Shown in pieces: positions 1 to 19,629 of a stretch of 32,709 nt of DNA (its first letter is position 1; each line of letters starts with the position of its first letter). Made by a program: the position numbers and the translations under genes. The stretch comes from Bacteroidales bacterium. Lineage in GTDB: Bacteria; Bacteroidota; Bacteroidia; Bacteroidales; PXBB01. The notes below the pieces were generated by a model. It did not search any database. It was given only the letters and a program-made list of their open reading frames with translations, and had not been told where the DNA came from. The stretch covers positions 1 through 32,709 of the forward strand of contig JAQVVM010000052.1 of the NCBI GenBank assembly GCA_028698995.1. Reading direction: 5' to 3'.

Positions 1-2243
<2,243 letters not shown>

Positions 2244-2274
2244 TTAAACATTTTATTCACTAAATATATTTAGA

Positions 2275-5200
2275 ATGGATTTAAAAAGTAAAATTATTAA
2301 AAGTTCCCAACACTCTTGTGCTGCAATTTTAGTATTTTTATTTTTGTTCATAAACATTTCTTTTTCTAAAGCGCAAGGTGTGGCTGTCAATGATGGCGGA
2401 GCTCCTCCCGATTCCAGTGCCATGCTTGATGTCTCCTCTTCCATAAAGGGTATGCTGGTTCCTCGCATGACGACTGTTCAGCGTTTGGCCATACCTCAGC
2501 CTGCAACCGCCTTACTTGTATATGATACTGATACTAATCAGTTTTGGTATTTCAATGGTACTCAATGGGTACTTGCAATTGGTCCAGTAGGTCCAACAGG
2601 CCCCACTGGCCCTATAGGTGCGACAGGAGCCGATGGGGCACAAGGATTACAAGGCACTACCGGCGCTACCGGAGCTGATGGTGCACAAGGTTTACAAGGT
2701 CCGACAGGCGCCACAGGAGCCGATGGTGCACAAGGATTACAAGGCCCGACAGGTGCCTCAGGAGTTGATGGTGCGCAAGGTTTACAAGGACCAACAGGAG
2801 CAACAGGTGCTGATGGCGCACAAGGATTACAAGGCCCTACCGGTGCCACAGGAGCCGATGGAGCACAAGGATTGCAAGGTCCGACAGGTGCCACAGGAAC
2901 CGATGGTGCACAAGGATTACAAGGCCCAACTGGTCCAACCGGTGCCGATGGTGACAAATATGCCAATTGCAATTCTGAAAATATTGATTTAAGCACAATT
3001 TTCCCATTAAGTACAGTCAATATGACTTTTGATATTGGTTTGGCATATACAGCCGGCCAAACAGTTATAGTTGCAAGTAATGGCACAAACTTTTTTGAAG
3101 CCTTCGTGCTGTCATACAATCCATTAACAGGACAAATTTCATTGCAAGTAACTTCAGTAACAGGAACAGGAAATTTTAACTATTGGTGTATTAATTTAGC
3201 TGGTGCGCCAGGTCAAGCAGGAGCTGACGGTGTCACCGGTCCAACCGGCCCCACAGGAGATACAGGAACTGCCGGTGCGGATGGAGCCACAGGCCCAACC
3301 GGCCCCACAGGAGATACAGGAACTGCCGGTGCGGATGGAGCCACAGGCCCAACTGGCCCCACAGGAGATACAGGAACTGCCGGTGCTGACGGAGCCACAG
3401 GTCCAACCGGCCCCACAGGAGATACAGGAACTGCCGGTGCTGACGGAGCCACAGGTCCAACCGGCCCCACAGGAGATACTGGAACTGCCGGTGCGGATGG
3501 AGCCACAGGCCCAACTGGCCCTACAGGAGATACAGGAACTACTGGTGCTGACGGAGCCACAGGCCCAACTGGTCCAACCGGTGCCGATGGTGACAAATAT
3601 GCCAATTGCAATTCTGAAAATATTGATTTAAGCACAATTTTCCCATTAAGTACAGTCAATATGACTTTTGATATTGGTTTGGCATATACAGCCGGCCAAA
3701 CAGTTATAGTTGCAAGTAATGGCACAAACTTTTTTGAAGCCTTCGTGCTGTCATACAATCCATTAACAGGACAAATTTCATTGCAAGTAACTTCAGTAAC
3801 AGGAACAGGAAATTTTAACTATTGGTGTATTAATTTAGCTGGTGCCCCAGGTCAAGCAGGAGCTGACGGTGTCACCGGTCCAACCGGCCCCACAGGAGAT
3901 ACAGGAACTGCAGGTGCAGATGGAGCAACTGGTCCTACCGGAGCAACCGGTGCTACAGGAGCTGATGGCCCACAGGGCATACAAGGCCCAACCGGTGCTA
4001 CAGGAGCCGATGGAGCACAAGGATTGCAAGGTTCGACAGGCGCTACAGGAGCCGATGGAGCACAAGGATTACAAGGCCCTACTGGAGATGCCGGAATCGC
4101 CGGTACGGATGGAGCTACGGGTGCAACCGGCCCTACAGGAGATACAGGAACTACTGGTGCTGATGGAGCTACGGGTCCAACCGGCCCTACAGGAGATACC
4201 GGAACCGCTGGTGCTGATGGAGCTACGGGTGCAACTGGTCCTACGGGATTAGATGGGGATAAATATGAAAATTGTTCATTAAATAATGCTCTTAATCTCA
4301 GTACACTTTCACCTTCTGATGTAATCACATTAGCTTTTTTCCCAGGATTGGCATATACGCCAGGACAAATTGCTATAGTATCGCATGATGGATTTAATTA
4401 TTTAGAAGTCCTAATTATTTCATACAATAGTTCTAGTGGGATGTTTAGTGTACAAATACTTTCAGTTACAGGAACTATTAATCATAATTCATGGTGTATT
4501 AATTTAGCTGGTGCCCCAGGTCAAGCAGGAGCTGACGGTGCCACCGGCCCAACCGGCCCCACAGGAGTGACAGGAGCTGACGGTGCACAGGGTTTGCAAG
4601 GTCCTACTGGGGCAACTGGAAGCGATGGGGCGACCGGAGCGACTGGTGCTGACGGAGTACAAGGTTTACAAGGTCCAACAGGTGTTACAGGTGCTGATGG
4701 CACACAGGGCATACTGGGCCCTACCGGAGCGACTGGAGCCGATGGGGCTCAAGGTTTGCAAGGTTCTACAGGTGCTACAGGAGCCGATGGTGCACAAGGA
4801 TTACAAGGTCCGGCAGGTGCAACTGGTGCTGATGGCCCACAGGGAATACAAGGCCCTACCGGAGCTACTGGAGCCGATGGTGCACAGGGATTACAAGGTC
4901 CGACAGGTGCAACTGGTGCTGACGGAGTACAAGGTTTACAAGGCCCCACAGGTGCTACAGGAGCCGATGGTGCACAAGGATTACAAGGTCCGACTGGGGC
5001 AACTGGAAGCGATGGGGCGACCGGAGCGACTGGTGCTGACGGAGTACAAGGTTTGCAAGGCCCGACCGGAGCTACTGGAGCTGACGGTGCTCAAGGATTG
5101 CAAGGACCAACCGGAGCTACCGGAGCTGATGGTGCAAGTGGTTCAACAGGAGCTACAGGACCAACCGGACCTCTGGGGTGTACAACAGCGAATGTAATTA

Positions 5201-8200
5201 TCAAATCAGATGGCACGACTGCGACCTGCACACAGGCACCTATATTTGAAACCTCAACAGCACCCTATAATGTAGGCATTGGTACCCAAACACCTGCTTC
5301 CAAATTTGTGGTGGCAAATGGTGCCGGCACTCCTGTGGTTACATTTGCTGTTGAGGCACCGGCTTCAATAAATGGCAGTGGTAATACATTTGCTGGTGTA
5401 GGGGCTGGTTTGGCTTCGCTTTCTGCTTATTCAAATTCATTTTATGGATATCAGGCAGGTTACAATATCAATCATGGATACAATAATACTTTAATAGGTT
5501 ACAAAACTGCATACAATAGTGCTGGAGCATATAATAATATATTTATAGGTAATGAATCAGGATATAATAATACTTCCGGTTATGAAAATATATTTATTGG
5601 ATACAAATCAGGCTATACAGGGACAACATCAATAAATAACCTTTTTCTCGGCAATTTAGCTGGATACTTTAATACAGGCAATAATAATACATTTTTGGGC
5701 ATGGGCTCAGGTTCCAACAACACTTCAGGAGAAAATAATGTTTTTACCGGTAATGGGAGTGGTTGGACAAATACAACTGGAAATAATAATACTTTCATAG
5801 GCTCAGCATCAGGTTCAAATAATTCTTCAGGTGAATTTCTACTTTTTTCTGGTTCTAGAGCAGGACTTAATAATACAACTGGTGAAAATAATGTGTTTTT
5901 AGGTGCGAGTGCTGCATTATTAAACACGACAGGAAGCTCCATTGTAGCCATTGGCTCTAATGTCTTATATAGCAATTCCGGGAATTCGAGAACTACAGCT
6001 ATCGGTTATAATGCAATGTCCAATGCAGATAACAGGACTGTGGGAAGAGAAACATATAATACAGCTGTGGGTTATGAAGCACTATATGGCAGCATTGTCC
6101 CGATAAGTAACACAGGCAGATTTAATACTGTAGTTGGTGATCAATCTCTTTATTCTAATACATCAGGAAATTATAACAATGGACTTGGTTTTCAGAGTTT
6201 ATACAGCAATACTTCTGGCCAAAATAATGTGGCAATTGGTCATCAGGCTTTGTTGTCTAATACTATTGGAAATGCGAATGTTGCTATAGGAAATGGGGCA
6301 TTACTTACAAATACAACTGGTGCTATGAATAGCAGTTTGGGAACCGGCTCCATGCAAAGTAATTTGTCAGGTTATGCCAATACTTCGTTAGGTTATAACA
6401 GTTTATTTAATAGTACAACAGCTTATCAGAATGTAGCAATTGGTTTCTTAACTCTATTTTCTAATGTGGCAAATTATTACAGTACTGCAGTTGGTGCTGA
6501 AGCAATGAGATATGCAAATAGTTCATCTACACCTACTCCTACATATAATACTGCTTTGGGCTTTACTGCATTAAGAGGTAGTACTACAGCCTCAGCAAAT
6601 ACAGGACAATGTAATACTGCGATTGGTAATGCCTCTCAAATGAATATTACATCAGGAAATTACAATACTGCTGTTGGACACATGTCATTATACAATGCAG
6701 CATCAGGAGGACAAAATACTGCACTTGGCAGTTCAGCAGGTTATAGTGTAACCACCGGTTCAGGTAATGTATTCATCGGTTTAAGTGCAGGATATAATGA
6801 AACAGGTTCAAATAAATTGTATATTGAAAACACAAATAGTAGCAAACCTCTTATCTATGGCGAGTTCGATAATGACCTAATCAGAATAAACGGCAAATTT
6901 GGAGTTCTCGAAACAGGTACATCACCCACGTATTACACCACCTTCCAGGGTGGCGACCAAAGTGCTAATATCACCTATACATTACCCATAGCTGATGGAA
7001 CTTCCGGGCAGCTGCTATCTACTAATGGTTCAGGTGTACTCAGCTGGGCTACAGCAGGAGGGAGTTCTCTATCTGGTTCCGGTGTAGCTACCAGAATCGC
7101 ATTTTGGTCTGACGCTTCAACCCTTAGCAGCAATGTAGATTTATTTTGGGATAACAACAATAATCGCCTTGGTGTAGGCACTGCTACACCTGCTGCGAAA
7201 TTTGAAGTAGCTGCAAACGATGCGCTTATAAACGAATTAACTGTTGGTAAAGGTGGAGGAAATATAAATACAAATACTGCTTTTGGAAGAAATGCTCTGA
7301 GTACTAATACAACCGGTGCTGCGAACTTGGCAATTGGCTATATGGCCTTATACGGTAATAGTACAGGTGGACAGAATACTGCCATTGGCATGCAGGCTCT
7401 TTATCATAATAAAGCAAATTCTCGTAGTACAGCTATAGGGTATAATGCCATGTTTAATGCTGATAACAGAACAACTGGCAGAGAAACAAATAATACTGCA
7501 GTTGGTTATGAGGCTATGTACGGTAGTCTCACAGCCGCAAATAATACAGGCAGGTGGAATACATCGGTCGGATATAGAACACTTTATAAAAATTCTTCAG
7601 GAGAAAATAATAATACCTTGGGATACCAAACAATGTATGAAAACACAGAGGGCTCCCGGAATATTGCCATTGGTAATGAGGCATTGCATAAAAACACGGA
7701 TGGACACTACAACAGCGCTGCAGGTAATGGTGCTATGTATTGGAATGTTTCAGGTGAAAAAAACAGTGGGTTTGGGGCCGGTGTCATGCAAAGTAATACT
7801 TCTGGTAATAATAATACAGCCATTGGTTATCAAGCAAGTTTCTATAATCAAACTGGCAATAATAATACAGCCATTGGTTATCAAGCAGGTGTTAACAATA
7901 ATTCTGGAAGTGGTAATGTTTTTATCGGACATGAAGCCGGTTACGTTGAAACTGGCTCTAATAAGCTTTATATTGACAATACAAACACAACGAAACCACT
8001 AATTTATGGGGAGTTCGATAACGACTTAATAAATATTAATGGCAAGTTTGGCATCCTCGAAGGCGGCTCTTCGCCTACCTACTATACAAAATTCCAAGGT
8101 GGAGACCAAGCCGCTAACGTCACTTATACCCTCCCCACTGCCGATGGTACAAGTGGACAAGTTTTGTCAACAAATGGTAGTGGTACATTAAGCTGGGCTT

Positions 8201-9072
8201 CAGCCGCTACAGGTACTGTAACAGGTAGTGGCACAGCCACCAGAGTTGCATTTTGGAATGGAAGTTCTTCTTTAAGTAGTAACGCCTCTCTTTATTGGGA
8301 TAACTCCAATAATCGACTCGGTATTGGCACAGCAACTCCCGGCTTTGCATTAGACGTAACTGGCAGAGCCAGAATAAAATATGGAGGTGGTACAGCAGGC
8401 ATTTGGTTTACAAATTCTTTAAATACATTAGACAGGGCCTTGATTGGTATGCATTCCGATGACTATGTTGGTTTATATGGAAGCGGCGGCGCTGGCTGGG
8501 GCTTGGCTATGAATGTAAACAATGGTTATATTGGAATAGGAAACACATCTCCATTAGCCAAATTACACATTTATCAAACTGCAGCTGCTACTGCTCTTAA
8601 AGTGGCACTAAGCAGTGGTGTTAAATTTACTGTGGCCTCCAATGGTGGTGTAACCATTGGAACGCTTGAGGATGTACCTCCTGCCAATGGCTTATATGTA
8701 TATGGGGATGTCGGCTTTGGAACAGCTACACCATCTGCCCAACTACACACTACAGGCAGCGTCCGTTTTGCAGGTGCAGGAACTCCCGGTGCAGGGAAAG
8801 TACTTACATCTGATGCCAGTGGCAATGCTACTTGGCAAACCCCAAGCATTACTGATGTATGCGATCAGATGACTGCTACCGACCTTCAATTAAGCTTCAC
8901 GCTTACTCAAACGCCTGCCACAAACAGCAAGGTTAAAATGTTTATCAATGGGGTGAGAATAAGCAATATGGCTTACAGCGTAAGTGGCACAACAGTATTC
9001 TATGATCCAACAAACAACGGTTCTTACGATTTAGAAGCAGGGGATAGGATACAGTTTGATTATTTTAGGTAA
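2275..9072 (+). CDS. Giant collagen-like protein with YadA-head-like repeats (2265 aa)
   Basis: A signal peptide (hydrophobic residues about 15-31, cleavage near SKA-Q34) precedes the Bacteroidota module [20 protein letters not shown] and a [17 protein letters not shown] segment. Four Gly-X-Y blocks follow (about residues 103-226, 313-439, 526-661 and 748-968). They are separated by three Cys-containing modules that start DKYxNC and end [10 protein letters not shown]; the first two are nearly identical and the third has diverged. After an IKSDGT hinge and a VGIGTQTP motif come two runs of repeats such as [10 protein letters not shown] and NTAVGYEAL (about 1036-1512 and 1662-1895), resembling the beta-roll heads of trimeric YadA-type adhesins. 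Each run ends in the same cap: [28 protein letters not shown]. The C-terminus (2195-2265) is a small domain ending RIQFDYFR. I see neither a YadA membrane anchor nor a T9SS tail. An adhesive surface fibre is my inference. Confidence 0.9.
2617..2931 (+). repeat. Seven 45-bp units encoding [15 protein letters not shown]
   Basis: Seven consecutive 15-residue collagen units occur at the start of the stalk of the 2265-residue protein. They differ at a few positions (GTT for GPT in unit 1, GASGVD in unit 4, GATGTD in unit 7) and at synonymous sites. The same unit recurs, more mixed, in 4570-5150. Confidence 0.9.
2922..3272 (+). repeat. Copy A of a 351-bp nearly identical direct repeat
   Basis: Compared by eye, 2922-3272 matches 3561-3911 (offset 639 bases, 213 codons) with a single difference, g at 3207 against c at 3846 (synonymous, both Ala). 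It encodes the DKYANC...[10 protein letters not shown] module and the start of the next collagen block. Confidence 0.9.
3256..3579 (+). repeat. Six tandem 54-bp units encoding [18 protein letters not shown]
   Basis: Six head-to-tail 18-codon units start at 3256, 3310, 3364, 3418, 3472 and 3526. They vary only at a few sites; the last has TTG instead of TAG in the protein unit. Shorter runs of related units occur after the second Cys module (near 3895 and 4135-4240). Confidence 0.9.
3561..3911 (+). repeat. Copy B of a 351-bp nearly identical direct repeat
   Basis: Second copy of the 2922-3272 segment, with the one difference at 3846. Near identity at synonymous positions points to recent duplication or gene conversion rather than protein-level selection; the third, related module at about 4258-4512 is clearly diverged. 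Confidence 0.9.
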
Positions 9073-9127: not shown

Positions 9128-9267
9128 ATTGTAAATTGTAAAATTCAAATTGTAAATTTTAAATTTGTTAGATGAAAATTTTACGAAATATATATAAATT
9201 AAAAAAATTGACAGACAGCTTCAATTTACAATTTACAATGCGTAGCTTAAAATTTACAATTTACAAT
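9128..9267. repeat. Three copies of a 15-bp repeat, one inverted, around the FISUMP start
   Basis: TTTACAATTTACAAT is present at 9225-9239 and 9253-9267, and its exact reverse complement at 9128-9142. The first direct copy ends on the ATG at 9238. In RNA the upstream arm could pair with either downstream copy, but the preceding promoter candidate would exclude the upstream arm from the main transcript. Similar AT-rich words occur widely in such genomes, so the role is open. Confidence 0.7.
9136..9167 (+). promoter_or_regulatory. Bacteroidota-type promoter for the FISUMP gene
   Basis: TTG at 9136-9138, a 21-base spacer and TAAATTTG at 9160-9167 match the Bacteroidota consensus TTG-N17-23-TAnnTTTG. 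Transcription would start near 9173-9174, on top of the upstream ATG at 9172. This favours the in-frame ATG at 9238 as the translation start. Confidence 0.55.
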
Positions 9268-11001
9268 AATACATTAAAGCTTATCATTTTGATAATCAGC
9301 TTTATGCCTCTTTTTTTAACTGCACAAAACGCTGTAACTAAACAAGGTGAAAGCACTTCCTCCGGTACTGGTTATGTAGATCATAATGGTAGAATTGTTG
9401 GATACACGGCCCTTACAAAACAAGGCGAAATACTATTTCCTTGTGAAACTCCATTTACTGACAGTCGAGATGGCAATGTTTATCCTATTGTGCGTATTGG
9501 GAACCAGTGTTGGATGGCTGAAAATTTAAAGTTTTTGCCGGAGGTGGTTGGCCCTCCAACAAATTCTTCAGGTATTAAATATTATTATGTTTATGATTAC
9601 AATGGAACAGATGTAAGCATTGCTAAATCTACTCCTGAGTATGCTTTATATGGTGTTCAATATAATTTTATTGCTGCAACAGATGGTAATTTTACGGGAA
9701 GTAGTTCAAATCCAAGCGGCATAAAAGGTGCTTGTCCTTCAGGTTGGCATTTGCCAAGCGACAGTGAATGGAAAGAGCTTACCGATTATCTTTCTTCAAA
9801 TCCACAATATTGGTGTGGAGGAAATTCAAGCAATACAGCTAAATCACTTGCAAATACTTTTGGATGGCTAACTAGTCCTACATCTTGTCATGTGGGTAAT
9901 GATCAAACATCTAATAATACTGCATCGTTTAATGGATTACCTGGTGGTTACTATAATACTGCTTCTTTTACATTTAAAGAAAATAGTGCTTTATGGTGGA
10001 GTGCAACTCAACAATCTCCTACTTTAAGCTATCTAAGAAGAATGTATTACAATGGTGCATCACCTGTAGCAGCTATTATTCAAAAAAGCTATGGTTTATC
10101 AGTAAGATGTATCCGTAATGATTGCGAATACTTACCTCCACCTACTTCTGCAACACATACTACAACCCCAACTTCAATAATTTGGAATTGGAGCGCTATA
10201 CCTCATGCCACAGGCTATAAATATAACACAACAAATAACTATTCAACAGCCATAGATATTGGCAATGTAACAAGCTTTACACAAAGTGTAACAAATGGTA
10301 CATGCGGCGAATTTACCTTATATGTATGGGCTTACAGCCAATGTGCTTTGTCTGAAGTAGGGATTTTAAAAGAATACAATTACATTACAGACGCAAGAGA
10401 CGGGAATCAATACAAAACTGTTCAGATAGGCAGCCAGTGCTGGATGAAAGAAAATCTTAAGTATGCAGCTTCGGGCTCTTGGTGCTATGATAATAATGTA
10501 TCCAATTGTATTACCTATGGACGTTTATATGATTGGGCTACCCTTATGAATGGCTTTTTAAGTAGCAGCAGTAACCCAAGTGGCGTACAGGGACTATGCC
10601 CAAGCGGATGGCATCTGCCCAGTGATGCAGAATGGACACAATTAACAGATTATTTATCCGCAAACAGTACTTATTGGTGTGGAGTTGTATCAACTCAGAT
10701 TGCAAAGGCTCTTGCCAATACCTCAGGTTGGGCTAATAGTGGCATAAGCTGTCATGTGGGAAATTCTCAAACATTTAATAACTCTTCTCAGTTCACTGCT
10801 TTGCCAAGTGGTAAACGACAATATATTATTACACCTCCTTATTATTCTTATAATTCAATAAATAGCTTTTGTCAATGGTTTTCCTCAACAGAAAATGTAT
10901 CTGCAGCTTGGACACGAGCATTGAATTCGACTTACGAAAGTGTTTACAGATGGGCTGAAGATAAGCAGAACGGATTTTCTGCCAGATGTGTAAAAAATTA
11001 A
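9238..11001 (+). CDS. Secreted protein with two FISUMP domains
   Basis: Two Fibrobacter succinogenes major paralogous (FISUMP) domains are visible. Each opens with D-RDGN-Y, has IG(N/S)QCWM(A/K)ENLK and CPSGWHLPSD(S/A)EW, and ends near S(V/A)RC(I/V)(R/K)N. A fibronectin-III-like linker of about 80 residues (TSIIWNWSAIPHATGYKY) joins them. The reading frame opens earlier, at ATG 9172 (609 aa), but I prefer ATG 9238 (587 aa). It begins MRSLKF and leads directly into a signal-peptide core ending FLTAQ, and a promoter match would place the transcript start at about 9173. Paired Cys in each domain suggest disulphides in an extracytoplasmic protein. The molecular function of FISUMP domains is not known. 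No T9SS tail is seen. The gene lies 165 bases after the giant collagen-like gene and appears to have its own promoter. Confidence 0.85.
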   Translation: MRSLKFTIYNNTLKLIILIISFMPLFLTAQNAVTKQGESTSSGTGYVDHNGRIVGYTALTKQGEILFPCETPFTDSRDGNVYPIVRIGNQCWMAENLKFLPEVVGPPTNSSGIKYYYVYDYNGTDVSIAKSTPEYALYGVQYNFIAATDGNFTGSSSNPSGIKGACPSGWHLPSDSEWKELTDYLSSNPQYWCGGNSSNTAKSLANTFGWLTSPTSCHVGNDQTSNNTASFNGLPGGYYNTASFTFKENSALWWSATQQSPTLSYLRRMYYNGASPVAAIIQKSYGLSVRCIRNDCEYLPPPTSATHTTTPTSIIWNWSAIPHATGYKYNTTNNYSTAIDIGNVTSFTQSVTNGTCGEFTLYVWAYSQCALSEVGILKEYNYITDARDGNQYKTVQIGSQCWMKENLKYAASGSWCYDNNVSNCITYGRLYDWATLMNGFLSSSSNPSGVQGLCPSGWHLPSDAEWTQLTDYLSANSTYWCGVVSTQIAKALANTSGWANSGISCHVGNSQTFNNSSQFTALPSGKRQYIITPPYYSYNSINSFCQWFSSTENVSAAWTRALNSTYESVYRWAEDKQNGFSARCVKN

Positions 11002-15349: not shown

Positions 15350-17302
15350 CTACCTTATCAGTGTTACTGTTCCATCAAGGATGTGTCTTTTGCTATGCCC
15401 ATCACGGTAAACAACCCGATAAGGGTAAACACCCTCAGGAACTTTATTGTTGTTGACTTTACCATCCCATCCCATATGCACATCATCCGTGAAAAACAGA
15501 AGTTTTCCCCATCTGTCAAAAATTCTCAATTCTATCTCTGTAACCCCATCTCCATAAATATAAAACATATCATTTTTAAGATCCTCATTTGGAGAAAAAG
15601 TATTGGGAATATAAATAGTAAACATGGGTTGGATATAGATTGAGCCAAAAGTCGAATCCATACACCCGTATTGATTAGAAACGGTAAGGGCTATCTCATA
15701 ATAGCCTGTGTCCGTAAATGTATGCGTAAATACAGGGACATAATAATGGGTGTTATCTTCAATATACCAGTGCCAGCTAGTTGCACCTGTAGAATTGTCA
15801 AAAAAGTTAATAATGGGTTCGAGTATTGGGGCTATTTTAGGGTCAGCTTGAAAATCTGCAATAGGATTGGGATGTAAAGTCAAAGGTACCGAAATGCTAC
15901 TCTCACAGCCGTATGCGTCACTTACAACAACGGTATAGGTCGTTGAGGTATTTGGTGAAACCATAATTATTGGAGAGGTGTTCTGGCTGCCTATAGTAGG
16001 GTCTGATGGACTGGAAGTCCATAGATAATTTGTTCCCCCTCCAGCAACAAGTGAAGCAGATTCACCTCGACAAAGTGCAGGATTTTCTGGTTTAATCGAT
16101 ACAGGAGGTAATTGATTAACTGTAACAACAACACTATCTGCTGAAGAACAGCCAATACTGTTCGAAACAGTTACGGTATAAGTAGTAGTTGAAGTGGGGG
16201 TTACTGTTATGGTCTGGGTTGTTGAAAAAGCACTCCAAATATAGGATGCACCGCCCGAAGCTGTCAGGCTAACAGAGTTGTTGACACAAATGGTGGTATC
16301 TTCGCTTATGATTATCTGAGGATTATCTGCAACACTTATAGTTTCAGTTACTGAATCAGCACAACCTTCGGGTGTAGAATAAGCATACTGAATAGTATAA
16401 GTACCAGGACCAACAGAAGATGGTGAGAACATATCACTTGTTACACCCTGTCCGCTGTATGTGCCTCCGGCTGGATCACCTCCGGTAAGAGCAAAATCAG
16501 GAATATCTCCACAAACATTCTGAAAAGGTGCTAATGTTACAATGGGCATAGGATTTACAACAACAACTGTTGTAACAGCAGGACTGGTCTGTCCATTAAC
16601 AGTAATAGTCATGGAATAAGTTCCTGCATCACCAGTAGTTACATTTGGAATAGTAATATCCATCAAATTTGATGTAAAGCCGTTTGGGCCAGTCCAGTTG
16701 TATGTGGCATTAGGATTTGGATTAGTAACAGTTATCTCAAGTGTTTCACCTTCGCATAAGGGTCCGTTGTTCTCAATAGGAGGAGCAAGAATACCGCAAT
16801 TAGTAGTACCATGATTAGGATTTCCGGTATTGGATTGGTGAAAATTTATGTTACATGGTTGATTTGAATAATTGCATATCAATAAAATATATATTTGGCC
16901 TGCTTGTGCATTAGGAATATTGCAGGTCTCGTTCCAAGCAGTTGAATAGCTGCAATCAACAGTATTTCCTGATGTCAGTTGAGCAACACAAGGTGATGTC
17001 TGATTAGTGAAAGGACCCCAGCACGAAAAATCAATGTCAACTTGAGGTGTACTGCTCATGTATATGTCAATTGGTCCGTTGTTCAAAACTTCCATATAAT
17101 ACCATGCAGGGTTTGGTTGTGTTCCTAAACAAGTATAAGCAGCTCCTGATTGTGCTGTTCCTGCATTTACACCGGCAGGAAAATTATAAACAGTGTCTGT
17201 GCAGAAAGGAAGAGAATTTTGACATAAATTATTTTGTGCACGAAGAGAAAAATGAAAAAATAATAATAACAATAATGGTAAAATCAATGCGGTTTTTCTC
17301 AT
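15350..17302 (-). CDS. Secreted Ig/PKD-repeat protein with CHU_C (T9SS) C-terminal domain, 650 aa
   Basis: A signal peptide (MRKTALILPLLLLLFFHFSLRA) is followed by an N-terminal Cys-containing domain (about 22-165). Several Ig/PKD-like repeats follow, recognisable by CEGETLEITV, CVNNSVSLTASGG and CRGESASLVAGGG. A PKD domain is at about 480-555 (NFFDNSTGATSWHW). The last ~90 residues are the gliding-motility-associated C-terminal domain: YIPNTFSPNEDLKND, LRIFDRWGKLLF, GWDGKVNN and the terminal DGTVTLIR. This type B tail directs export through the type IX secretion system and often links to motility adhesins. The start lies 11 bases after the stop of the upstream 771-residue paralogue, with which it shares the last ~170 residues in outline. 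Adhesin or enzyme function is not determinable; the Ig repeats favour adhesion. Confidence 0.92.
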   Translation of the reverse strand: MRKTALILPLLLLLFFHFSLRAQNNLCQNSLPFCTDTVYNFPAGVNAGTAQSGAAYTCLGTQPNPAWYYMEVLNNGPIDIYMSSTPQVDIDFSCWGPFTNQTSPCVAQLTSGNTVDCSYSTAWNETCNIPNAQAGQIYILLICNYSNQPCNINFHQSNTGNPNHGTTNCGILAPPIENNGPLCEGETLEITVTNPNPNATYNWTGPNGFTSNLMDITIPNVTTGDAGTYSMTITVNGQTSPAVTTVVVVNPMPIVTLAPFQNVCGDIPDFALTGGDPAGGTYSGQGVTSDMFSPSSVGPGTYTIQYAYSTPEGCADSVTETISVADNPQIIISEDTTICVNNSVSLTASGGASYIWSAFSTTQTITVTPTSTTTYTVTVSNSIGCSSADSVVVTVNQLPPVSIKPENPALCRGESASLVAGGGTNYLWTSSPSDPTIGSQNTSPIIMVSPNTSTTYTVVVSDAYGCESSISVPLTLHPNPIADFQADPKIAPILEPIINFFDNSTGATSWHWYIEDNTHYYVPVFTHTFTDTGYYEIALTVSNQYGCMDSTFGSIYIQPMFTIYIPNTFSPNEDLKNDMFYIYGDGVTEIELRIFDRWGKLLFFTDDVHMGWDGKVNNNKVPEGVYPYRVVYRDGHSKRHILDGTVTLIR

Positions 17303-17313
17303 GTCAATCTATT

Positions 17314-19629
17314 CTATCTTACTAAACTTACTGTACCTGTAATTCTTTTCCTTTTATTAAAGCCGTCTAAATAATCAACTTTGTAGAAATATACATCCAC
17401 AGGAGCATCTTTGTTATTTAATGTCCCATCCCAGCCGATATTAATATCATCTGTACGGAAAACAAGTTCACCCCATCTGTTGAATATTCGTAATTGAAAT
17501 TCCATAATGCCTTCACCATATACATAAAACATATCGTTTTTTAAATCATCGTTGGGTGTAAAAGCATTAGGAACATAAATTGTAAAATTGGGTTTAATTG
17601 TAACATAATTAGTTGTAGAATCAACACAACCGTAAATGTTGTAAACAGTTAATGTAACCTCAATTGTGCCTGTATCACTGAATGTGTGCTCAAAAGAGGG
17701 GGAGGTGTATTGAGAACCATCACCCAGTTGCCAATTCCATATAACAGCTCCCGTTGAATTGTCAAAAAAGTTAATGTGGGGTTCAAAAATATTTACAACT
17801 TTTGGAGTAGCATAAAAACTTGCAACAGGGTTCGGATTAAGAATTACCTGTCCGGATGCGGTATTAGTGCAACCTATACTATCGGTTGCAACAACTGAAT
17901 AGGTTGTTGTGTATCTTGGAGAAACTAATAATATCTGATTGCTTGATTGGTTTCCCATTGTTGGGTCCGAAGGTGCAGCTGTCCATGCATAAGTAACTCC
18001 TGCACCGGCTACAAGGCTTACGGATTCCCCTTTGCAAATAGATTGAGTGGGAGGTTTCACTGTGACTTCAGGTAAATCCTTTACACTGACAAAAACACTG
18101 TCATAACCATCACATGCTCCATAAATTGTAACAAAGTAGTTGGTGTTTTGTGTAGGTTGAACCGTTATGGATGCAGTAGTTGAACCTGTACTCCATAAAT
18201 AGGAATTTCCACCTGCTGCCCATATAGTGCCGGAACTTCCACTGCAAATAAGGGTGTCATTACACACAGAACCATATCCTGATCCAACACCAATAGAAAT
18301 CTGATCTGTATGTACCTGGAAGCAATCATCAGAAATAGTAACAGTATAAACTGTTGGTTGTGAAGGGCTGACTGTAATAATGCTTCCGGTTGAGCCATCG
18401 CTCCAAGCATAGGTGTAGGGCGGAATACCTCCGGTTGCTTCAATAAATAAATCTATAGTATCCCCACAAATTAATGTATCATTGCTTTTTACTAAAGTAG
18501 TTAAAAGCTCATTATTTAAGATAAAAATTACAACGGAGTCCATCCCCGAACATACGGTTGTTTGCGCTGTTAATATGACAGTAACGGTTGGACCGGGAAG
18601 TCCTGTAAAAAGGGGATAAATAGTAGTAGTTGCAGAATTCTGTCCGGCAAGAATTGTTACCGAATCGGCTATGGGAATATAATCCACACCCATAATCGCA
18701 GTGCCACCAAGTGAATAATGAATGGTGAAGTCATTCGTTACGTTTTGAGTTGTGGTAAATGTTATTATGGCATCACTGCAACCTCTGATGGCGGCGGTAT
18801 CTATTGCTGAATAAGAATAAGCTGTTGAGATACTTATTGCATTAGATGTAAAACTGTTTTCTTCTAGGAAAACAGCTGAATCGTAAGCAGAGTCACCGGC
18901 ATCTCCTACTGCAATTTTAATGGTATATTGAACACAAGGTGTTACAAGTGCCCAAGCAGTTAGTACGGTTGTAAAACCATCATACTGAACAGTAGCCCCA
19001 CTTGCATTGTTGACATAATATTGAGAATAGGAGCTTGCGTTGATATTGTCAATTGTAACAGGGAGCGTTGTCCCTGGTATTCGAGCAATATTATAGTTGG
19101 TATAGTTGCCACCTCCTGGATTAGGACCTGAAACAAAAAACCCAAAAACATCATTAAAACTTGACCCCACCCATTCAGGGTATTCATCTGAACCAAAAAC
19201 ATAACGGAATTTAATAGTGTCTGATTCCGGAACAAAATTAAATTGCAGATAACATGCATCATTTATTGTATAACCAGGGATGAGGGAAGCTAATTGAGGA
19301 TCACTACCTGTACCATTACTTGTTGTAATACTTCCTGACCCATTTGGACCAGGAGCATCCATAACACTACCCGATGATAAAATAATTCCTGATGTAATTC
19401 CAAGATTAGTAGGTGAGCCTGTTGTAAAACTTCCTCTGGAGTTTGCTGCTCCGCTAAAGGTAGGATTCGTAACAGTAACGCCACCACCAACCAATACATC
19501 GACCAGTTGCTGTGCACTTAAATTTGGTGTGATCTGTAATTGTGAAAAACTTCTTAAAAACGGGAAAGATACAATTATGATTATTATAATGAATCTGATT
19601 GCATTCAGACGTTTATATTTTTTACACAT
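17314..19629 (-). CDS. Secreted choice-of-anchor L protein with CHU_C (T9SS) C-terminal domain, 771 aa
   Basis: The signal peptide ends near SFSQ. A choice-of-anchor L domain occupies about residues 30-260 (QQLVDVLVGGGVTV, GIILSSGSV, YVFGSDEYPEW, NDVFGFFVSG). It is followed by a Calx-beta-like segment (GGTAIMGVDYIPI, DSVTILAG) and several Ig/PKD-like repeats with paired Cys. A PKD domain (INFFDNSTGAVIWNW) and a CHU_C tail (YVPNAFTPNDDLKND, LRIFNRWGELVF, ending ITGTVSLVR) close the protein. It is thus a T9SS substrate. The gene is the first of a minus-strand run with the 650-residue paralogue and the VOC protein. The 224-base divergent space to the dipeptidase gene holds a lone exact -7 octamer (minus strand, 19736-19743) but no well-spaced -33. 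Confidence 0.93.
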   Translation of the reverse strand: MCKKYKRLNAIRFIIIIIIVSFPFLRSFSQLQITPNLSAQQLVDVLVGGGVTVTNPTFSGAANSRGSFTTGSPTNLGITSGIILSSGSVMDAPGPNGSGSITTSNGTGSDPQLASLIPGYTINDACYLQFNFVPESDTIKFRYVFGSDEYPEWVGSSFNDVFGFFVSGPNPGGGNYTNYNIARIPGTTLPVTIDNINASSYSQYYVNNASGATVQYDGFTTVLTAWALVTPCVQYTIKIAVGDAGDSAYDSAVFLEENSFTSNAISISTAYSYSAIDTAAIRGCSDAIITFTTTQNVTNDFTIHYSLGGTAIMGVDYIPIADSVTILAGQNSATTTIYPLFTGLPGPTVTVILTAQTTVCSGMDSVVIFILNNELLTTLVKSNDTLICGDTIDLFIEATGGIPPYTYAWSDGSTGSIITVSPSQPTVYTVTISDDCFQVHTDQISIGVGSGYGSVCNDTLICSGSSGTIWAAGGNSYLWSTGSTTASITVQPTQNTNYFVTIYGACDGYDSVFVSVKDLPEVTVKPPTQSICKGESVSLVAGAGVTYAWTAAPSDPTMGNQSSNQILLVSPRYTTTYSVVATDSIGCTNTASGQVILNPNPVASFYATPKVVNIFEPHINFFDNSTGAVIWNWQLGDGSQYTSPSFEHTFSDTGTIEVTLTVYNIYGCVDSTTNYVTIKPNFTIYVPNAFTPNDDLKNDMFYVYGEGIMEFQLRIFNRWGELVFRTDDINIGWDGTLNNKDAPVDVYFYKVDYLDGFNKRKRITGTVSLVR

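What the first reader, a model, noticed from the sequence alone, without database searches (positions are those of the whole stretch)
2275..9072. Collagen stalk plus YadA-like head in one 2265-residue chain: a possible trimeric fibre without a known anchor
Collagen-like Gly-X-Y blocks and YadA-type head repeats are both normally homotrimeric, so their union predicts a three-chain fibre. The C-terminus is neither a YadA membrane barrel nor a CHU_C or type A T9SS tail, leaving export and attachment unexplained beyond the signal peptide. The last 70 residues ([15 protein letters not shown] to QFDYFR) are a candidate anchor or trimerisation cap.
Basis: partly seen in the sequence, partly recalled or inferred. 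Interest (0 to 1): 0.65.

Follow-up and report, generated by a model that had tools for sequence, protein, structure and literature searches.

The report
Phage-like surface fibre with tip-docking cap
This bacterium encodes a very long secreted fibre built from phage tail-fibre parts, whose conserved end is probably not a membrane anchor but a socket for a sugar-binding-type tip protein encoded by the next gene.

Summary
In detail: 2275-9072 encodes one 2265-aa secreted chain with a signal peptide, 208 perfect Gly-X-Y triplets in four blocks, two blocks of 17-residue NNTxIG repeats, no YadA anchor and no T9SS tail. The reading changes. The last 72 residues are a compact beta-sandwich (AF2 pLDDT 91) closest to the XD2 docking domain of phage CBA120 TSP4 and to T4 gp10. 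They recur in 41 Bacteroidota loci, always as the last ~58-74 residues, behind very different upstream modules. In 29 of 41 loci (leave-one-out) a downstream gene, usually the next one, carries a ~40-aa 'TKxGxxT...YVNKNGxxG' motif, usually beside a lectin-like domain. In this genome cap and motif each occur once, in neighbouring genes (8854-9069; 9331-9453). Among 296 phylum genomes the motif occurs in 3 of 5 with the cap and 0 of 291 without. Best model: a phage-derived fibre whose cap is a socket for a separately encoded adhesin tip. Trimerisation, docking and export are inferred, not shown. The NNTxIG blocks are only loosely YadA-like.

The parts
2275..9072 (+). Fibre gene, 2265 aa
2275..2373 (+). 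Signal peptide, aa 1-33 (...NISFSKAQ)
   Evidence: sequence; no lipobox Cys seen
2374..2580 (+). N-terminal domain ('[34 protein letters not shown]')
   Evidence: same type on other fibres of this genome; phage relatives, 56% identity over 54 aa in Leptolyngbya phage Lbo-JY46
2581..2958 (+). Collagen block 1, 42 triplets
2959..3201 (+). Globular insert D1 ('DKYANC...YWCINLAG')
   Evidence: 43% identical domain between collagen-like GTSGTSG repeats of a 2816-aa protein in a 735-kb phage
3202..3597 (+). Collagen block 2, 44 triplets
3598..3840 (+). Globular insert D2, 99.6% identical to D1 in DNA
3841..4263 (+). Collagen block 3, 47 triplets
4264..4509 (+). Globular insert D3
4510..5184 (+). Collagen block 4, 75 triplets
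5368..6813 (+). NNTxIG repeat block 1, period 17
   Evidence: PHROG virion structural and tailspike families
6814..7254 (+). Linker with tail-fibre-type motifs ('[24 protein letters not shown]', 'LGVGTATP')
   Evidence: sequence
7255..7962 (+). NNTxIG repeat block 2, period 17
   Evidence: 20 of 99 genomes sampled in the order have such blocks; AF2 pLDDT 70
7963..8853 (+). Linker modules before the cap
   Evidence: sequence
8854..9069 (+). C-terminal cap, 72 aa, predicted XD2-like docking domain
   Evidence: 41 loci; AF2 pLDDT 91.4; CBA120 TSP4 7rfv 157-250, VIA Z 10.1
9172..11001 (+). Predicted tip gene: signal peptide, docking motif, two FISUMP domains
   Evidence: Fib_succ_major E=5.5e-56; motif leave-one-out E=4e-7
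9331..9453 (+). Motif 'AVTKQGESTSSGTGYVDHNGRIVGYTALTKQGEILFPCETP', just after the signal peptide
   Evidence: only match in this genome
3..2243 (+). Upstream second fibre: collagen plus right-handed beta-helix, cut by the contig end
   Evidence: Pfam Collagen and Beta_helix

Best explanation
The gene encodes a long secreted surface fibre assembled from phage tail-fibre modules. Three chains probably wind together through the collagen blocks, with the NNTxIG blocks as stiff segments. The N-terminal end faces the cell. The C-terminal 72-residue cap folds like the XD2 docking domain of phage baseplate and tailspike proteins, and offers a trimeric socket at the far end. The next gene makes a secreted tip protein: a ~40-residue plug motif followed by FISUMP (probably lectin-like) domains. 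The plug docks on the cap, so the same kind of fibre can carry different adhesin tips in different species. Shown by computation: the fold of the cap, its strictly terminal position, and the linkage and co-occurrence of cap and motif. Inferred: trimerisation, docking, adhesion, orientation and export route. Export past the outer membrane is unresolved. In relatives with another N-terminal domain type, a small T9SS type A tailed protein and/or an outer-membrane barrel gene lies just upstream and may provide it.
For: Cap fold: AF2 pLDDT 91.4; best PDB matches TSP4 XD2 (Foldseek rank 1, E 2.8e-3; VIA Z 10.1, 77 aligned, rmsd 3.9), then T5/DT57C neck, KP1 and T4 gp10 baseplate; 28 viral models at E<=1e-3, many of them tail fibres and tailspikes. 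XD2/XD3 of TSP4 and gp10 mediate binding of other trimeric proteins (PMC8825819). Position: last ~58-74 residues in all 41 loci with very different upstream modules. Linkage: 29 of 41 loci have the motif in a downstream same-strand gene, leave-one-out E<1e-3, with no such hit upstream or in the fibre. Uniqueness: one cap and one motif in this genome, adjacent. Co-occurrence: 3 of 5 cap genomes against 0 of 291 others (Fisher p 2.3e-6). Genomes whose contigs are not in the training set, G012, G216 and G274, have the motif downstream of the cap. Domains in the partner proteins include FISUMP, Lcl_C, LamG and a weak Fibrinogen_C. Modules have phage relatives. Upstream partners in other loci: T9SS-tailed protein in 13 and barrel in 10, including decayed copies.
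Against: No multimer or complex prediction could be run, so trimerisation and docking are unproven. Foldseek E-values for the cap are modest (best 2.8e-3), and XD-like sandwiches also occur where no tip is known to dock. Some cap loci lack a detectable motif downstream, including two genomes with diverged caps (G318, G370) and five loci with an opposite-strand neighbour. In G120, G622 and G631 the motif is recognised only weakly or by eye. Many of the 41 loci are related Flavobacterium, so they are not independent. The motif's place varies (start, middle or end of the partner), which a simple plug does not explain. The upstream partners of this particular fibre are unknown.
Confidence: 0.55

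Rival explanations
1. The cap is a new class of T9SS C-terminal sorting signal: a small terminal beta-sandwich recognised by the secretion machinery, with the downstream gene merely part of the operon.
For: Strictly C-terminal, conserved, and found in T9SS-bearing Bacteroidota; this genome has SprA (E=4.5e-181); type A CTDs are also beta-sandwiches (PMC12618676).
Against: No profile similarity to type A or B CTDs (hhalign probability 0.3% and 0.2%). Distant relatives are internal or terminal in viral proteins, where no T9SS signal is needed. About 20 sister fibres in this genome lack it. It does not explain the 1:1 link with the motif gene.
Confidence: 0.17
2. The cap only nucleates and registers the trimer, like a foldon, and the downstream lectin-like protein is an independent secreted protein that happens to be co-transcribed.
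For: Collagen and phage fibres often need a trimerisation domain; XD domains occur in trimers (PMC8825819).
Against: Sister fibres manage without it. The motif tracks the cap across genomes even though the domains around it differ.
Confidence: 0.2
3. The C-terminus is an outer-membrane anchor of trimeric-autotransporter type.
Against: Confident soluble sandwich with phage relatives. The window copy ends in Arg and others in NN or INE. No YadA_anchor over cut-off in the genome.
Confidence: 0.04
4. These are remnant or resident prophage tail fibres with no cellular role.
For: Modules are phage-like; one cap in G622 lies on a small contig with phage-type genes.
Against: Signal peptides, housekeeping neighbours (GAPDH, RsgA, dipeptidase) and no virion genes in this window; about 20 sister genes in the genome.
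Confidence: 0.04

Closest known systems
Phage CBA120 TSP4 (XD2/XD3 domains) and T4 gp10
   Same: Same fold as the cap; trimeric docking platform for separately encoded trimeric adhesins (PMC8825819)
   Different: XD domains are N-terminal or internal there; here the cap is terminal, on a bacterial secreted fibre, and is far more conserved
T-even phage gp37/gp38 (fibre plus separately encoded tip adhesin)
   Same: Long trimeric fibre with a tip adhesin from the next gene (from memory)
   Different: No sequence link tested; cellular, signal-peptide-bearing
Legionella Lcl and streptococcal Scl collagen-like adhesins
   Same: Collagen stalk; Lcl_C-like domain appears in some partner proteins
   Different: Lectin and stalk are one chain in Lcl; no LPXTG here; NCBIfam cut-offs missed
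YadA-type trimeric autotransporters
   Same: Stalk-and-head plan; short repeats with NNTxIG flavour
   Different: No YadA Pfam match, 17-residue period, no anchor barrel
T9SS surface adhesins (SprB/SprF, RemA)
   Same: Same phylum; T9SS present; T9SS-tailed or barrel genes upstream of related fibres
   Different: No CTD on fibre or tip

Membership tests
YadA-type trimeric autotransporter | C-terminal YadA anchor barrel | tested here: not met
   no PF03895 match in the protein or over cut-off in the genome
YadA-type trimeric autotransporter | YadA head repeats | tested here: inconclusive
   no Pfam YadA family; 17-residue period; low-confidence solenoid model without a significant match
T9SS substrate | type A (TIGR04183/PF18962) or type B (TIGR04131/PF13585) C-terminal domain | tested here: not met
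T9SS substrate | secretion depends on SprA/PorV | not testable with these tools
   SprA gene present; dependence needs a mutant
XD (gp10-like) docking domain | XD2/XD3 jellyroll fold | tested here: met
   VIA Z 10.1 to TSP4 157-250, Z 8-9 to several tail proteins; on a predicted model
XD (gp10-like) docking domain | trimer that binds a second trimeric protein | not testable with these tools
   only genomic coupling to the motif gene
Collagen-like protein | uninterrupted Gly-X-Y triplets | tested here: met
   42-75 triplets per block
Lcl / SclA / SclB adhesin | NCBIfam curated cut-off for the whole protein | tested here: not met
   310 of 500, 310 of 325 and 277 of 400 bits, best stretches in the collagen blocks

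The most novel reading that the evidence does not exclude
A plug-and-socket surface-adhesin system spread across Bacteroidota: a phage-derived XD-type socket at the end of highly variable secreted fibres receives a short plug motif carried by exchangeable lectin-like, FISUMP, LamG or fibrinogen-like tip proteins, while the N-terminal domain type matches different outer-membrane or T9SS partners, so both ends of the fibre are modular.
Probability: 0.45. Interest if true: 0.78.

Novelty: new variant of a known kind. Interest (0 to 1): 0.6.

Why it matters
It turns an unexplained C-terminus into a testable prediction: which gene product binds it, and where. If right, Bacteroidota have made phage receptor-binding architecture their own for adhesion, with a conserved socket and exchangeable tips. 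That would give a rule for annotating many orphan FISUMP, LamG and collagen proteins. It also poses a clear question on how CTD-less fibres cross the outer membrane in T9SS bacteria.

Tried and rejected
Cap as a known domain: Pfam, NCBIfam and PHROGs give no significant hit for the window copy, though some relatives match phage tail-fibre PHROGs. Cap as type A or B CTD: rejected. Joining contig C37 (PorP/SprF, then the N-terminal part of a fibre) to the window's truncated first gene: no overlap and different repeat DNA, so not claimed. Head block against the PDB: no Foldseek hit below E 0.03; VIA rows are generic beta-helices, YadA absent from the list. Literature searches found no description of this pairing, but only in the open-access library held. 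Weak motif hits in G139 and G447 lie in unrelated genes without a cap nearby and are taken as chance. In one search the first two sequences were mistyped by me (a chimera and a truncation); their results are not used.

Full report
OBSERVATION. The ORF at 2275-9072 encodes 2265 residues. Four perfect Gly-X-Y blocks hold 208 triplets. Three ~84-aa globular inserts separate them; two are 99.6% identical in DNA, so exact copy number in this draft contig is uncertain. Two blocks of NNTxIG repeats follow, with a period of 17 residues. The C-terminus matches no YadA anchor or T9SS tail.

CONTEXT IN THE GENOME. The window is contig C55 of a 4.47-Mb, 119-contig draft genome. It has 127 collagen matches on about a dozen contigs, in some 20 long secreted proteins. 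These share a few N-terminal domain types but end very differently: S74-chaperone-like, glycine-rich and others. So the C-terminus varies and the N-terminus is constant, as in phage fibres. SprA, the T9SS translocon, is present; no YadA anchor is.

PHAGE RELATIVES OF THE MODULES. N-terminal domain: 56% over 54 aa in a Leptolyngbya phage. Insert D: inside a collagen-like 2816-aa protein of a 735-kb phage. NNTxIG blocks: PHROG tailspike and virion proteins. Cap: distant matches in five viral contigs, 28 viral models, and the end of a fibre on a contig with phage-type genes in G622.

THE CAP. Forty-one loci from Flavobacterium, Cytophagaceae, Chitinophagaceae, Cyclobacterium, Belliella, Pedobacter and others carry it, always as the last ~58-74 residues, with 44-74% identity, behind collagen, coiled-coil-like, NNTxIG or phage-repeat stalks. 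The model is confident (pLDDT 91.4). Its best structural match is XD2 of CBA120 TSP4 (residues 157-250, VIA Z 10.1), followed by phage neck and baseplate proteins including T4 gp10. According to PMC8825819, XD2 and XD3 form trimers across which trimeric partner proteins bind.

THE PARTNER. The gene after the cap usually holds a ~40-residue motif with consensus xTKNGxxSxxxxNYVNKNGAxGxxxGxxxxGxxxxxK. With each locus left out of the profile in turn, 29 of 41 loci have it at E<1e-3 in a downstream gene on the same strand, mostly the first one, and none has it upstream or in the fibre. In this genome it occurs once, 0.3 kb after the only cap; with the window row left out, the window hit has E=4e-7. 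In 296 phylum genomes the motif is in 3 of 5 cap genomes and 0 of 291 others (Fisher p 2.3e-6). In 149 genomes of the order, G012 and G037 have cap and motif in neighbouring genes. G037 is the training locus L049; G012, G216 and G274 have contig lengths not in the training set. G120, G622 and G631 show the motif weakly or by eye right after the cap gene; G318 and G370, with diverged caps, do not. In 395 class genomes the only strong hits are the same three; five weak ones (E 8e-4 to 6e-3) lie in genomes without a cap.

WHAT THE PARTNER CARRIES. In the window: a signal peptide, the motif at once, then two FISUMP domains. Elsewhere: Lcl_C/FISUMP, LamG, weak Fibrinogen_C, arabinofuranosidase-like and Ig-like modules. 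This is what tip adhesins would look like, but binding was not tested.

THE OTHER END. In 13 cap loci a small protein with a T9SS type A tail lies upstream (Por_Secre_tail E=1.7e-13 for L060), and in 10 a ~205-240-aa protein that looks like an outer-membrane barrel, including decayed copies. These go with 'YQAV'-type N-terminal domains, also on a cap-less fibre of this genome (L020). I infer that the N-terminus faces the cell and the cap faces outward. For the window's own N-terminal type the partner is unknown, since the upstream gene is a second fibre cut by the contig end.

HEADS. AF2 of block 2 with 22 relatives gives pLDDT 70: a solenoid-like monomer, with no significant Foldseek match. 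This neither confirms nor refutes a trimeric head.

VERDICT. A phage-derived surface fibre with a socket-like cap and a linked tip gene, confidence 0.55. The collagen-plus-repeat fibre itself is ordinary for this genome. The cap/motif pair is the interesting part and appears undescribed in the open-access papers searched.

Noticed in passing
L131 (G631:C19:47000-57630), 98-3146: Four consecutive small secreted genes share an identical start 'AQRTMFGAQNNYVAP' followed by either FISUMP-like or LamG-like sequence, downstream of a cap fibre and its partner: looks like a cassette array of alternative tips with a second constant tag.
   Followed up: partly
L130 (G622:C196): A cap-like C-terminus at the end of a fibre gene on a 4.2-kb contig with phage-type genes, in a genome that also has the cellular version.
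   Followed up: partly
window 15350-19629 (-): Two adjacent CHU_C (T9SS type B) proteins with PKD/Ig domains close to the fibre locus.
   Followed up: no
L018 (G000:C37:1-4000): A PorP/SprF-like gene and a type B tailed gene lie directly upstream of another fibre with the same N-terminal type as the window's fibre, at a contig end.
   Followed up: partly
G000:C85 around 64921: An open frame of 11,730 aa in this genome, possibly a giant surface protein.
   Followed up: no
L009-L013: Clusters of long fibres with nearly identical N-terminal ~150 aa ('QVLTGNPVEPAIPNQNPFFDASTNHDPSVTFENNNNKGLVFPR') and unrelated C-terminal ends.
   Followed up: partly
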